A stretch of 64,000 nucleotides of DNA from positions 496,001-560,000 of the forward strand of contig NZ_JAOBQJ010000004.1 of the NCBI RefSeq assembly GCF_026162425.1, written 5' to 3'. The notes below the pieces were generated by a model. The model was not told the DNA's origin and did not search any database. It saw nothing but the letters and a program-made list of their open reading frames with translations. Positions 207 to 62,966 of this stretch are shown here, piece after piece. Every line of letters starts with the position of its first letter. Position 1 is the first letter of the stretch. The translations under genes were made by a program, and so were the position numbers. This DNA comes from Flexivirga meconopsidis. Lineage in GTDB: Bacteria; Actinomycetota; Actinomycetes; Actinomycetales; Dermatophilaceae.

Positions 207-704
207 TCAGGCATCTTGCCGCGCGGCGCGTGCCCGGACCAGTTCCTCGACGGCGCTGGGCAAGGTGTGCTCGAAGTCGATCAGCTTCGCCCAGGTCGGG
301 GTCACAACGATCCGCACCATCGCCGGGTAGAGCGAGCGCACCTCGGCCTCCCACTCCACCCGCTGTTCGTCGCTCATCCGGTAACTGCCGTTGATCTGCA
401 GATACTCCTCGGGGATGCCCTCCACGAGGTCGAGTTCGACGGTGCCTCGGATCAGCAGGATCTTCGGTGGGTGCACCTCGGTGTCGATCGTCAGCGCGAC
501 CTGCGGGTTGCGCCGCAGCGAGGGCAGCTTGGGCGCGTTGGTGCTGGTGCACAGCACCAACGTCGAGCCGTTCCAGGCGAACGCGATCGGGATGCACCGC
601 GGGGTGCCGTCGGCCGCGACATACGCCAGGCGCGCAATGTCGCGGGCCAGTAGTTCCGCGCTGCCCGGACGGTTCAGGACCTCGGTGACGTCTTGTTGGT
701 CCAT
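207..704 (-). CDS. Pyridoxamine 5'-phosphate oxidase family (FMN-binding split barrel) protein
   Basis: A 165-residue protein beginning MDQQDVTEVLNRPG. The segment IARLAYVAADGTPRCIPIAF is the first strand pair of the split-barrel flavin-binding fold (LAxVxxDGxPxxxPxxF). It is followed by LPSLRRNPQVALTIDTE, the usual KxxxLRRNPxVALxxD element that contacts the flavin in this superfamily. The length is normal. Members bind FMN, F420 or haem and reduce diverse substrates; the sequence does not identify the cofactor or substrate. It may be cotranscribed with the YciI-like gene downstream. The 110 bp before it, up to the GNAT gene, contain no other obvious gene. Confidence 0.8.
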   Translation of the reverse strand: MDQQDVTEVLNRPGSAELLARDIARLAYVAADGTPRCIPIAFAWNGSTLVLCTSTNAPKLPSLRRNPQVALTIDTEVHPPKILLIRGTVELDLVEGIPEEYLQINGSYRMSDEQRVEWEAEVRSLYPAMVRIVVTPTWAKLIDFEHTLPSAVEELVRARAARQDA

Positions 705-814
705 CGTCTTGCTCCTGTTCCAGAGGTGTCGGGCCGCCGTGGTGGGCGGCTCGTACCCCTGGGACGGAGCGGTCCGGAGCTTCTCGACATCCCCGCGAGA
801 AAAGTTTGCGGCGG

Positions 815-1402
815 CTACTCCGCCGACGAGGACGCCATCGCGACCCGGGTGCGGGAGCGGGCGCGCAGCGACCGCCGGCGGCGTACTGCCTCGGACACCG
901 AGGGCGGGTGATGGCTGCCTGCCAACCGGCGACGCAGCGCGGCGGCGGTCGTGGTGCGCTCAGTGACCACCGACGCAAAACCGAGCCGGGCGAAGAACCG
1001 GTTGGCGTCGCGGCTGGTCGCCGGCACGCAGGAGACGATGTCGGAGGCACCCAGGTGCTCGGCGTATGACGCAACCATCGCCAGCAACGCCTTGGCGACC
1101 CCGCGCTGGCGCCGCCCCGGCTTCACCCAGAGCAGGTCGATCCAGACCGCGATGTCGTCGTTGAGCGCACTGACCGGGCCGTGCATGACGACGGTGAAGC
1201 CGACCGGCTCCTCGTCGATCGTGGCGAGGTAGATGCGCACGTCCTCGCGCTGACACGAGACCCGCAGGCGGCCCTCGCGAATGGTGCGTTCGGCGTGGTC
1301 GGCCGACAAACCCTGGGCGGCTCGAGACTCCACCCACAAAGCGGCGAACCGCTCCTCGTCGCCCGGGCTGACCCGCGCGACCTGCACGGCCGATCTGGCC
1401 AT
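815..1402 (-). CDS. GNAT family N-acetyltransferase
   Basis: A 195-residue protein starting MARSAVQVARVSPGDEERF. This start is preferred over an ATG 42 bp upstream because a GGAGGA ribosome-binding site sits 5-10 bases before it. The GNAT core is clear: VWIDLLWVKPGRRQRGVAKALL is strand 4 plus the R/QxxGxG/A acetyl-CoA pyrophosphate loop (here RRQRGVAKAL), and NRFFARLGFA is the C-terminal strand motif. The last 35 residues are very basic (VRRRRSLRARSRTR) and lie outside the domain. The acceptor substrate cannot be predicted. It is transcribed away from the liv operon end and separated from it by 138 bp. Confidence 0.8.
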   Translation of the reverse strand: MARSAVQVARVSPGDEERFAALWVESRAAQGLSADHAERTIREGRLRVSCQREDVRIYLATIDEEPVGFTVVMHGPVSALNDDIAVWIDLLWVKPGRRQRGVAKALLAMVASYAEHLGASDIVSCVPATSRDANRFFARLGFASVVTERTTTAAALRRRLAGSHHPPSVSEAVRRRRSLRARSRTRVAMASSSAE

Positions 1403-1540
1403 TGACGTCCTCCGTGGCAGACACCGATGAGTAGTTGAATGCACGACTGCAGACGGCAGCGTACGCCTCCCACCCGGGTGCCCGACACAGGGTTGGAACA
1501 GTCAGTTGTCACACCCCGACTCATCGGTAACCTGCGCCGC

Positions 1541-61400: not shown

Positions 61401-61795
61401 AACCGCTCGCGGTCCTCGCCGAGCTCGATCGCCTCGACGTTGGCGCCGATCAGCGGGCAGTCGTACTTTTCCAGCACCCCCGCGTCGTGCAGCGCGATGG
61501 CGGTGTTGAGCGCCGTCTGACCGCCCAGGGTCGCCAGCACCGCATCCGGCCGCTCCTTGGCGATGATCGCCTCGACCACCTCGGGAGTGATCGGCTCGAC
61601 GTAGGTCGCGTCGGCGAACTCCGGGTCGGTCATGATGGTCGCCGGATTGGAGTTGACCAGCACCACGCGGATGCCCTCGGCGCGCAGCACCCGGCACGCC
61701 TGGGTGCCGGAATAGTCGAATTCGCAGGCCTGCCCGATGACGATCGGCCCGGAGCCGATCACGAGCACGCTCTTGATGTCGTCCCGTTTGGGCAT
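58490..61795 (-). CDS. carB: Carbamoyl-phosphate synthase large subunit
   Basis: Large, 1101-residue subunit making carbamoyl phosphate from bicarbonate, ATP and ammonia. Two homologous ATP-grasp halves are visible: [22 protein letters not shown] (N half) and [21 protein letters not shown] (C half). ATP-grasp lysine/acid motifs occur in both ([39 protein letters not shown]). A C-terminal MGS-like allosteric domain ([15 protein letters not shown]) follows. It lies 2 bp from carA and is normal in length. Confidence 0.97.
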
Positions 61796-61796
61796 G

Positions 61797-62966
61797 TCAG
61801 TTCTTCTCCATCAGTTCCACGAAGCGATCGAACAGGTATGCCGCATCGTGCGGGCCGGCCGCGGCCTCCGGGTGGTATTGCACCGAGAACGCAGGCACGT
61901 CAAGGCATTCCAGCCCTTCGACGACGTCGTCGTTGAGTCCGATGTGCGACACGCGCACCCGGCCGAACGAGTCACCGGCGGGTGCGGTCACCGGCTCGCC
62001 GTCGCGCGGCGCGTCGACCGCGAAGCCATGGTTGTGCGCGGTGATCTCGACCTTGCCGGTCGTGCGGTCCAGCACCGGTTGGTTGATGCCGCGGTGGCCG
62101 TACTTCAGCTTGTAGGTGCCGAAACCCAGTGCGCGGCCCAGCAATTGGTTGCCGAAGCAGATGCCGAAGAACGGCACCTTCGCCGCGAGCACCTCCCGCA
62201 ACACCTCCACCTGCGGCGCGGTCGCCGGGTCGCCCGGGCCGTTGGAGAAGAAGACCCCGTCGGGTTGCACCGCCCGGATCGTCTCGAAGCTGCTGTCGGC
62301 GGGCAGCACGTGCACCTCGATGCCGTGCTGCGCCATCAGGTGCGGGGTCATGCCCTTGATCCCGAGGTCGAGCGCGGCGACGGTGAAGCGCTTCTCCCCC
62401 TCTGCCGGTATGACGTAGGCCTCGCTCGTGCTCACCTGCGACGCCAGCTCGGACCCGGCCATCAGCGGCTGATCCTGCACTCGCTGCACGAGATCGGTTG
62501 CATCCGCGCCCGGGCCGGAGAAGATGCCGACCCGCATCGCACCACGCTCGCGCAGATGCCGGGTGAGCGCCCGGGTGTCGATGCCGCTGATCCCGACCAC
62601 GCCCTGCTCGATCAGGTCGTGCTCGAGGGTGCGGGTGGCGCGCCAGTTGGACGGCCGCAGCGCGGGGTCGCGCACGACATACCCGCTGACCCAGATCTTG
62701 CGGGACTCCCGGTCCTCGTCGTTGACGCCGGTGTTGCCGACGTGCGGCGCGGTCATCACCACGACCTGGCGGTGGTAGCTGGGGTCGGTCAGCGTCTCCT
62801 GGTAGCCGGTCATCCCGGTGGAGAACACCGCCTCCCCGAAGGTCTCACCGATGGCGCCGTAGGCCTGTCCGCGGAAAGTGGTGCCGTCCTCCAGCACGAG
62901 CGTCGCGGGCTCGCGGCCGGTCAGCGGGTCGATGACCGATGCCGTGTCGCCGGTCGGGGTCGTCAT
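61797..62966 (-). CDS. carA: Carbamoyl-phosphate synthase small subunit
   Basis: Glutamine-hydrolysing subunit, 389 residues from [19 protein letters not shown]. The N-terminal half ([18 protein letters not shown]) is the CarA-specific domain. The class I amidotransferase triad is complete: [12 protein letters not shown] (nucleophilic Cys) and [13 protein letters not shown] (His and Glu). NGPGDPA lies at the oxyanion region. An upstream start is possible but would overlap pyrC more deeply than the usual ATGA coupling seen here. Confidence 0.97.

What the first reader, a model, noticed from the sequence alone, without database searches (positions are those of the whole stretch)
617..62686. GTATGNCG: an iterated asymmetric octamer resembling a DNA-uptake or modification signature
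Nearly every GTATG in the window is followed by NCG: about 94 of about 105 by eye, where base composition alone predicts fewer than ten octamers. Copies are spaced about 1.5 per kb, lack strand bias, lie mostly inside genes and override codon bias, so Ala, Ser, Pro, Thr and Gly before Tyr or Met use GCA, TCA, CCA, ACA and GGT, and hisF even uses the rare Ile codon ATA. Density, orientation balance, tolerance within genes and use in a terminator are the hallmarks of uptake sequences in Neisseria and Pasteurellaceae. I know of none described in Actinomycetota. A methylation site or a nucleoid-protein site would also fit.
Basis: partly seen in the sequence, partly recalled or inferred. Interest (0 to 1): 0.9.

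Follow-up and report, generated by a model that had tools for sequence, protein, structure and literature searches.

The report
Candidate DNA-uptake signal in Actinomycetota
A bacterium of the genus Flexivirga carries thousands of copies of one eight-letter DNA word, and its relatives carry related words or none, a pattern much like the password that some bacteria use to take up DNA of their own kind, which I found reported only for two families of another phylum.

Summary
GTATGNCG occurs 96 times in the window (96 of 107 GTATG) and 5745 times in the 4.28-Mb genome. Synonymous-codon shuffling of the window's genes gives 7.9 copies on average (maximum 15 in 500 runs) against 94 observed.

The host is a Flexivirga. 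All 5 genomes of the genus carry the motif. By my thresholds 63 of 119 family genomes carry it, ten carry GTACGNCG instead, one sampled genome each carries GGATGCCG and GTATGCGG, and 37 fall below both main thresholds. Twenty-two genomes of other families of the order are at background. The word thus comes in dialects, switching even inside a genus.

Copies are strand-neutral, more evenly spaced than random, placed in protein-cheap frames, kept between species, and missing from an island with restriction-modification genes. Non-motif GTATG is not depleted. RecC is absent from 45 of 66 bearers.

I judge it most likely (0.62) a self-DNA uptake signal read by an Flp/Tad competence apparatus feeding ComEA/ComEC. 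Uptake was not tested and no receptor identified. The link to a second Tad locus is suggestive only; three bearers lack an intact one.

The parts
617..62682 (.). The array of 96 GTATGNCG copies (extent of all copies)
   Evidence: Pattern scan; gene and reading frame of each copy
1064..62415 (+). 46 copies on the + strand, first bases: 1064, 2280, 3604, 5737, 7837, 9116, 10469, 12059, 14068, 17237, 20687, 21066, 22136, 23249, 24283, 26414, 26837, 27823, 29645, 32712, 33751, 35002, 35183, 35276, 35590, 36265, 38646, 39836, 40749, 43136, 44329, 45038, 45860, 47025, 47268, 48234, 50281, 51328, 52030, 55263, 56715, 57701, 59639, 59705, 61836, 62408
617..62682 (-). 50 copies on the - strand (lowest base of each): 617, 2622, 3743, 5269, 5682, 6486, 7686, 8646, 9154, 10194, 12208, 12891, 14238, 14991, 17256, 18052, 19047, 21236, 22994, 24222, 26338, 27634, 28436, 28751, 29240, 31946, 33027, 34376, 34469, 35843, 36874, 38471, 39673, 40379, 42216, 43640, 45232, 47159, 47597, 49565, 51246, 54963, 55417, 56336, 57294, 57887, 58274, 59485, 59602, 62675
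17237..17263 (-). Head-to-head pair of copies in a 14-bp hairpin stem, in the gap between an oxidoreductase gene (17288-18745 -, Fer4_20 + Pyr_redox_2, gltD-like by recall) and the pyruvate kinase gene (15764-17236 -): terminator-like, no T-run
52038..54962 (.). Largest motif-free gap of the window (2933 bp between copies); it holds a 725-aa gene (52656-54833 -) of GC3 0.78 with no Pfam match; recently acquired DNA is my inference
29653..31945 (.). Second largest motif-free gap (2301 bp); three called genes, of which 30329-30985 + (GC3 0.84) and 31078-31935 + (GC3 0.71) have no Pfam match; the third (29672-30034 -) was not searched

Best explanation
GTATGNCG is the Flexivirga dialect of a DNA-uptake signal. 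Inferred mechanism: during competence an Flp/Tad pilus (perhaps with parts of two tad loci, as others showed for Micrococcus luteus) or an exposed partner such as ComEA binds double-stranded DNA holding the word and hands it to ComEA/ComEC; the imported strand recombines. Alleles that hold the word are taken up and copied more often, so the word accumulates in shared genes at about one per 0.75 kb, on either strand, wherever the protein tolerates it, while newly arrived DNA lacks it. Shown here: the enrichment, its genome-wide and genus-wide extent, the dialects, strand neutrality, maintenance between species, frame choice, and the presence of comEA-like, comEC and tad genes. Not shown: competence, uptake preference, the receptor.
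For: (1) 5745 copies in the genome, 5019 to 8019 in each of 5 Flexivirga genomes, a scale like known uptake sequences (kingDUS 5918 in 2.4 Mb; PMC3630211, passages). (2) Related words: GTATGNCG in 63 of 119 family genomes, GTACGNCG in 10 (3371-8819 copies), GGATGCCG in G030, GTATGCGG in G024; a switch within genus g26 (G029, G120 versus G094) and bearers beside non-bearers in g3. On a quick ComEC tree of 63 genomes the states need at least 12 changes. Neisseriaceae uptake sequences also come in dialects (PMC3630211). (3) Strand-neutral: 238 sense, 213 antisense in genes (P = 0.26). (4) Fewer short and long gaps than random: under 100 bp 42 versus 59 +/- 7, over 2500 bp 12 versus 25 +/- 3.5. 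(5) Maintained: 244 of 441 aligned copies unchanged in another Flexivirga versus 45 of 198 for ten control patterns; TAT stays TAT in 102 of 137 motif codons versus 82 of 217 others (ordered pairs, not independent). (6) A 17.5-kb gap without copies holds C5-methylase, GmrSD-like, Z1 and DUF4420 genes; called genes of GC3 under 0.75 hold 0.26 per kb against 0.96-1.34. (7) ComEC in 115 of 119 family genomes; a ComEA-like gene (HHH_3 and SLBB; below the NCBIfam ComEA cut-offs) beside comEC, and tad genes, in this genome. At most one TadA homologue in 0 of 66 bearers and 9 of 34 non-bearers at least 90% complete, P = 3e-5. M. luteus needs both tad loci for transformation (PMC4322843, passages).
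Against: I found no uptake experiment for this group. The Tad association rests on five genera, not all independent; the tree-controlled comparison has 0 or 1 informative pairs. Bearers without an intact second tad locus: G021 (TadA-B matches stop after about 220 residues and low-GC3 DNA follows), G116 (no second TadA hit of that type), G030 (no tad-B pilin in the 1.7 kb after TadC). A tad-B pilin (TadF) hit is missing in 5 of 66 bearers and 9 of 34 non-bearers, P = 0.015. 25 of 34 non-bearers have at least two TadA homologues and the TadF hit, so the machinery does not predict the motif. Three bearers under 90% complete show one TadA (G034, G058, G111). The four genomes without a ComEC match (G032, G058, G059, G109; 330-760 contigs, 58-95% complete) are all bearers. 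Inverted pairs are only modestly in excess (27 versus about 14.5 expected; tail-to-tail 19). In Pasteurellaceae uptake sequences lean to gene ends and one orientation (PMC2346458, first of three parts read); here neither is seen. The word has 7 fixed bases, fewer than known ones. No pilin stood out: Flp alone passed a permutation test that ignores relatedness (P = 0.002, six proteins), yet it is much alike across dialects.
Confidence: 0.62

Rival explanations
1. Chi-like recombination signal: the word regulates a RecBCD-, AddAB- or AdnAB-type nuclease and is enriched because it promotes repair.
For: Chi is also an over-represented octamer (recalled). RecC is present in all 5 Flexivirga.
Against: RecC is present in only 21 of 66 bearers but in 21 of 34 non-bearers (P = 0.005, the wrong way round; relatedness not controlled). 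No orientation bias (46/50 in the window, 238/213 in genes), whereas E. coli Chi is strongly oriented (recalled). AdnAB and AddAB were not searched.
Confidence: 0.12
2. Binding site of a chromosome-organising or segregation protein (nucleoid protein, SMC loader, translocase).
For: Genome-wide spread and even spacing would fit; the motif is kept between species.
Against: Such a core function should not be missing from all examined members of 15 of 48 genera, nor flip dialect within a genus. Oriented translocase sites would show strand bias; none seen.
Confidence: 0.1
3. DNA-modification or restriction signature: a conserved methylase marks GTATGNCG.
For: Asymmetric 7-base specificities occur among methylases (recalled); this genome has a C5-methylase gene in an island.
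Against: Restriction selects against sites rather than for them (general knowledge). Non-motif GTATG is not depleted: 0.26 per kb in Flexivirga, 0.22 in non-bearers of like GC. The methylase island itself lacks the word. No methylation data were available and methylases were not surveyed across the family.
Confidence: 0.07
4. Repair or mutation bias, such as Vsr-like repair or biased gene conversion that turns near-miss words into GTATGNCG; perhaps an analogue of HIP1 of cyanobacteria.
For: GTATGNTG is rare: 3 against 11-15 expected in Flexivirga. GTAC observed/expected is lower in GTATG genomes (mean 0.63 versus 0.80, ranges overlap).
Against: GTATGNTG is just as rare in non-bearers of like GC (0.007 versus 0.006 per kb). 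Most other one-letter neighbours range from about half to about two or three times expectation, with no general depletion; GTATANCG (1 against 3-5) is the other rare one.
Confidence: 0.07

Closest known systems
Neisseriaceae DNA uptake sequence (DUS) and its dialects, read by the minor pilin ComP
   Same: Short word in thousands of copies, both strands, many in genes, within one family, dialects, some hairpin pairs
   Different: Other phylum; PilM in only 5 of 119 genomes, Tad/Flp genes instead; shorter word; few hairpin pairs; no receptor known
Pasteurellaceae uptake signal sequence (USS), predicted receptor PpdA/ComN
   Same: Genome-wide self word with two dialects in one family (PMC12616744, passages)
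   Different: Different word and phylum; no lean to gene ends here; the AT-rich flanks of USS (recalled) have no counterpart: flank positions carry at most about 0.11 bit in Flexivirga
Micrococcus luteus Flp/Tad-dependent natural transformation
   Same: Same order; two tad loci plus comEA/comEC
   Different: The term 'uptake sequence' does not occur in the two M. luteus papers searched (PMC4322843; PMC12849477); M. luteus itself was not scanned here
HIP1 of cyanobacteria (recalled)
   Same: Iterated octamer of patchy distribution
   Different: HIP1 is a palindrome; this word is asymmetric

Membership tests
DUS/USS-type DNA uptake sequence | Short motif enriched genome-wide in thousands of copies | tested here: met
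   5745 copies; 9 to 12 times codon shuffles, 19 to 27 times masked Markov models
DUS/USS-type DNA uptake sequence | No genome strand bias, tolerated inside genes | tested here: met
   46/50; 238 sense, 213 antisense; sense frames 164/51/17
DUS/USS-type DNA uptake sequence | Depleted from acquired DNA | tested here: met
   17.5-kb gap with restriction-modification genes; called genes of GC3 under 0.75 at 0.26 per kb; one island annotated, so a limited test
DUS/USS-type DNA uptake sequence | Dialects within a family | tested here: met
DUS/USS-type DNA uptake sequence | Inverted pairs at terminators | tested here: inconclusive
   27 versus about 14.5 expected; 16 of 27 between genes
DUS/USS-type DNA uptake sequence | Bias to gene ends and to one orientation in genes (reported for Pasteurellaceae, PMC2346458) | tested here: not met
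   Quintile counts flat (P = 0.74 sense, 0.95 antisense); 238 versus 213, P = 0.26. The same paper reports no such terminal bias for Neisseria, so the gene-end bias does not define both groups; it does report one orientation as commoner in reading frames of both
DUS/USS-type DNA uptake sequence | Bearers have a DNA-uptake machine | tested here: met
   ComEC 115 of 119, TadA homologue 117 of 119, ComEA-like gene in this genome; most non-bearers have it too, and the four genomes without a ComEC match are fragmentary bearers
DUS/USS-type DNA uptake sequence | Sequence-specific surface receptor | tested here: inconclusive
   No A-locus protein tracks the dialect convincingly; tad-B pilins and ComEA were not compared
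DUS/USS-type DNA uptake sequence | Motif raises DNA uptake or transformation | not testable with these tools
   needs a bench assay
Chi site of RecBCD | Cognate RecBCD present | tested here: not met
   RecC absent from 45 of 66 bearers, though present in all 5 Flexivirga
Chi site of RecBCD | Orientation bias | tested here: not met
   orientation against the replication origin itself was not tested
Restriction/methylation site | Avoidance of unmodified or related sites | tested here: not met
   No depletion of non-motif GTATG
Restriction/methylation site | Base modified in the motif | not testable with these tools
   no kinetics data

The most novel reading that the evidence does not exclude
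A third, independently evolved self-DNA uptake language, the first in Actinomycetota and in bacteria without an outer membrane, with at least four dialects in one family, read by an Flp/Tad competence apparatus rather than a type IVa pilus.
Probability: 0.58. Interest if true: 0.95.

Novelty: new variant of a known kind. Interest (0 to 1): 0.88.

Why it matters
A 2025 paper calls Neisseriaceae and Pasteurellaceae the only families known to tell homologous from foreign DNA at the binding step by enriched short motifs (PMC12616744, passage seen). A third case in another phylum, with a different pilus and several dialects, would show convergent evolution of self-recognition in bacterial transformation, predict natural competence in some 33 genera of one family, give a handle for finding a Gram-positive DNA receptor by dialect swapping, and offer a practical tag for transforming these bacteria.

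Tried and rejected
PilM-type type IV pilus: PilM_2 in 5 of 119 genomes, so not the general machine. ComEC as a discriminator: 115 of 119, no use. Vsr-like conversion: GTATGNTG looked depleted under Markov models but is equally rare in non-bearers. Chi: rejected as a general account on RecC distribution and lack of orientation. Retention test: the first run (348 of 573 versus 85 of 264) held the same Flexivirga caeni stretch twice (L139 and L158); rerun without L158, which I report. Receptor search among Tad-A proteins by distance regression: inconclusive. A cluster of inverted pairs at 15-19 bp was noticed after the fact; over the full 8-30 bp range Flexivirga has 7 head-to-head pairs against 4.9 expected. 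TadA search of named genomes: the best 80 of 578 relatives were kept; 55 pooled as Streptomycetaceae hold 58 GTATGNCG in 1073 kb, background. Literature: the listings of ten searches showed no report of GTATGNCG or GTATGCCG and none of an uptake sequence in Actinomycetota; most listed papers were not opened, and the library holds open-licence papers only.

Class thresholds (at least 200 GTATGNCG per Mb and twice the reversed pattern; at least 800 GTACGNCG per Mb and three times) were set by me after seeing the counts. Four 'weak' genomes (G110, G126, G128, G140) were left out of the bearer/non-bearer comparison; genomes G091, G117 and G135 were called GTATGCGG by genus although only G024 was sampled, and count among the 66 bearers. 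In the tree, G126 counts as GTATG. Completeness, not contamination, defined the 102 genomes used.
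Full report
What was checked. A direct scan finds 107 GTATG and 96 GTATGNCG, 46 on the + and 50 on the - strand. In the list the next pentamer with at least 20 occurrences, GTACG, is followed by NCG in 22 of 53 cases; NCG in general follows at 0.146. Shuffling synonymous codons among the window's genes, which keeps proteins and codon usage, gives 7.9 +/- 2.6 copies, never more than 15 in 500 runs, against 94.

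Genome and taxon. The window is bases 496001-560000 of contig 5 of a 4.28-Mb genome in 10 contigs; the genome holds 5745 copies. A TadA protein of this genome is 75% identical to those of Flexivirga endophytica and F. caeni, and the same-genus genome G002 has a contig as long as the F. caeni record hit (63,444 bases). The organism is thus a Flexivirga (NCBI: Micrococcales, Dermacoccaceae). The family of the genome search is wider than NCBI's Dermacoccaceae; that it is GTDB's Dermatophilaceae, with Terrabacter, Intrasporangium, Luteipulveratus and Janibacter, is my inference.

Distribution. All 5 Flexivirga genomes hold 5019-8019 copies. Across 119 genomes of the family (53 genera, drawn from a larger group) counts range from 34 to 8019. 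The 22 genomes of the order outside the family are at background for this word, at most 436 copies with 491 of the reversed pattern; they were not scanned for other words. k-mer scans of 5-424 kb per genome show related words in several genera that lack GTATGNCG: GTACGNCG (G027, G065, G073 and, as GTACGCC, G028), GGATGCCG (G030), GTATGCGG (G024); many genera prefer C at the N position. Counting GTACGNCG in the same 119 genomes gives 10 clear bearers with 3371 to 8819 copies. By my thresholds: 63 GTATG, 10 GTACG, 1 GGATG, 4 in the GTATGCGG genus (one sampled), 4 weak, 37 below both. Named stretches: Terrabacter, Terracoccus, Pedococcus and two Intrasporangium species have 8-15 GTATGCCG in 19-21 kb; a Luteipulveratus stretch has 38 GTACGNCG in 21 kb; one Mobilicoccus and three Janibacter stretches have 0 or 1 GTATGNCG. 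A codon shuffle confirms GTACGNCG in five bearers (289 versus 78.8 +/- 7.4), while three non-bearers show GTATGNCG 11 versus 17.1 and GTACGNCG 113 versus 76.4, so part of the GTACGNCG excess is general.

Evolution. On a quick ComEC tree of 63 genomes (17 of 60 inner branches weak, no bootstrap; a gene tree, not a species tree) the five states need at least 12 changes (shuffled mean 23.3), and starred branches force at least 7 changes of the non-bearer label. Genus g26 holds GTATG (G029, G120) and GTACG (G094) genomes; genus g3 holds GTACG (G079, G130) and empty (G006, G108) genomes.

Anatomy of the copies. Flanking positions carry at most about 0.11 bit in Flexivirga; in G011 and some others 0.2-0.4 bit. 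In 464 kb of this genome (window plus 20 stretches, genes by my own caller) genic density is 1.11 per kb and intergenic 0.94; 238 copies are sense and 213 antisense (P = 0.26); the frame that yields Cys, Trp or stop holds 17 of 232 sense copies. Copies are spread evenly along genes, unlike the gene-end bias reported for Pasteurellaceae (PMC2346458, part 1 of 3 read). Gaps are more even than random placement in the same stretches. Called genes of low GC3 hold few copies (0.26 per kb under 0.75), and a 17.5-kb gap with C5-methylase, GmrSD-like, Z1 and DUF4420 genes holds none. Between Flexivirga species 244 of 441 aligned copies are kept against 45 of 198 control words, and TAT codons inside the word resist the drift to TAC (102 of 137 kept versus 82 of 217); these are ordered pairs of eight stretches, not independent. 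Head-to-head pairs at 8-30 bp number 27 against about 14.5 expected over five dialect sets, tail-to-tail 19, direct 28 against about 29; 16 of the 27 lie between genes. The one in the window is a strong hairpin between the oxidoreductase and pyruvate kinase genes.

Against avoidance and conversion. GTATG outside the word occurs at 0.26 per kb in Flexivirga and 0.22 per kb in non-bearers of similar GC; GTATGNTG is equally rare in both. The word was therefore added, not left over from removal of its neighbours. GTAC tends to be scarcer in GTATG-dialect genomes (mean observed/expected 0.63, range 0.30-1.01, n = 32, versus 0.80, range 0.64-0.97, n = 18); I have no firm explanation.

Machinery. ComEC is matched in 115 of 119 genomes; the four without a match are fragmentary assemblies of bearers. 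PilM_2 is matched in 5. Two kinds of tad locus were seen in the fetched stretches: locus A (TadZ-TadA-TadB-TadC-Flp-TadE-TadF, with a DEAH-box helicase gene nearby in G007) and locus B, both in bearers and in non-bearers such as G013 and G014. In this genome a ComEA-like gene (HHH_3 + SLBB) adjoins comEC. In Micrococcus luteus two tad loci and comEA/EC are needed for transformation (PMC4322843, passages). Genomes with at most one TadA homologue are 0 of 66 bearers and 9 of 34 non-bearers among those at least 90% complete (P = 3e-5); by genus 0 of 33 and 5 of 15 (P = 0.0018). These losses represent few lineages, and the tree-controlled comparison has no power. Two homologues is also weaker than an intact locus B: in G021 the TadA-B matches break off, G116 shows no second TadA of that type, and in G030 no tad-B pilin was found in the 1.7 kb after TadC; all three bear a word. 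They may be recent losses with words not yet decayed, or evidence that locus B is not essential here.

Rivals. RecC occurs in 21 of 66 bearers and 21 of 34 non-bearers (P = 0.005), which with strand neutrality speaks against a RecBCD Chi site; AdnAB and AddAB remain unexamined. A chromosome-organising site should not come and go within genera. A methylation site would need kinetics data, and enrichment of this size is not what restriction produces (general knowledge).

Verdict. I hold the uptake-signal reading at 0.62. Established is a genome-wide iterated asymmetric octamer with dialects in one actinobacterial family; that it works in uptake is inferred by analogy and exclusion. Listings of ten searches in an open-licence library showed no report of it, and a 2025 paper names only two families with such signals (PMC12616744, passage).

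Noticed in passing
L257 (G021:C14:18001-23000): TadA matches of the second tad locus stop at about base 2526 and are followed by low-GC3 reading frames, in a genome that still bears the word.
   Followed up: partly
L258 (G030:C1:2428001-2432000): After TadC of locus B comes a 422-aa low-GC3 reading frame where pilin genes are expected.
   Followed up: partly
L138 (G000:C3:10001-30000): A third, divergent tad-like gene set (540-aa TadA) in a motif-poor stretch (3 copies in 20 kb); weak TadA-like hits of similar length occur in the other four Flexivirga.
   Followed up: no
L036 (G000:C1:80001-100000), 8184-15383: DUF4420 PD-(D/E)XK, Z1, GmrSD-like and C5-methylase genes in a motif-free gap.
   Followed up: partly
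family genomes: GTAC observed/expected is lower in GTATG-dialect genomes (mean 0.63) than in non-bearers (0.80), with overlap.
   Followed up: partly
L149, L243, L237 between TadC and Flp: In several genomes the A tad locus has several kb between tadC and flp, in G006 with two proteins of about 600 aa.
   Followed up: no
window 52656-54833 (-): 725-aa protein of GC3 0.78 without Pfam match and without any copy of the word.
   Followed up: no
Neisserial DUS ATGCCGTCTGAA (quoted in PMC2346458) versus GTATGCCG: The two words share ATGCCG; with such short words this may well be chance.
   Followed up: no
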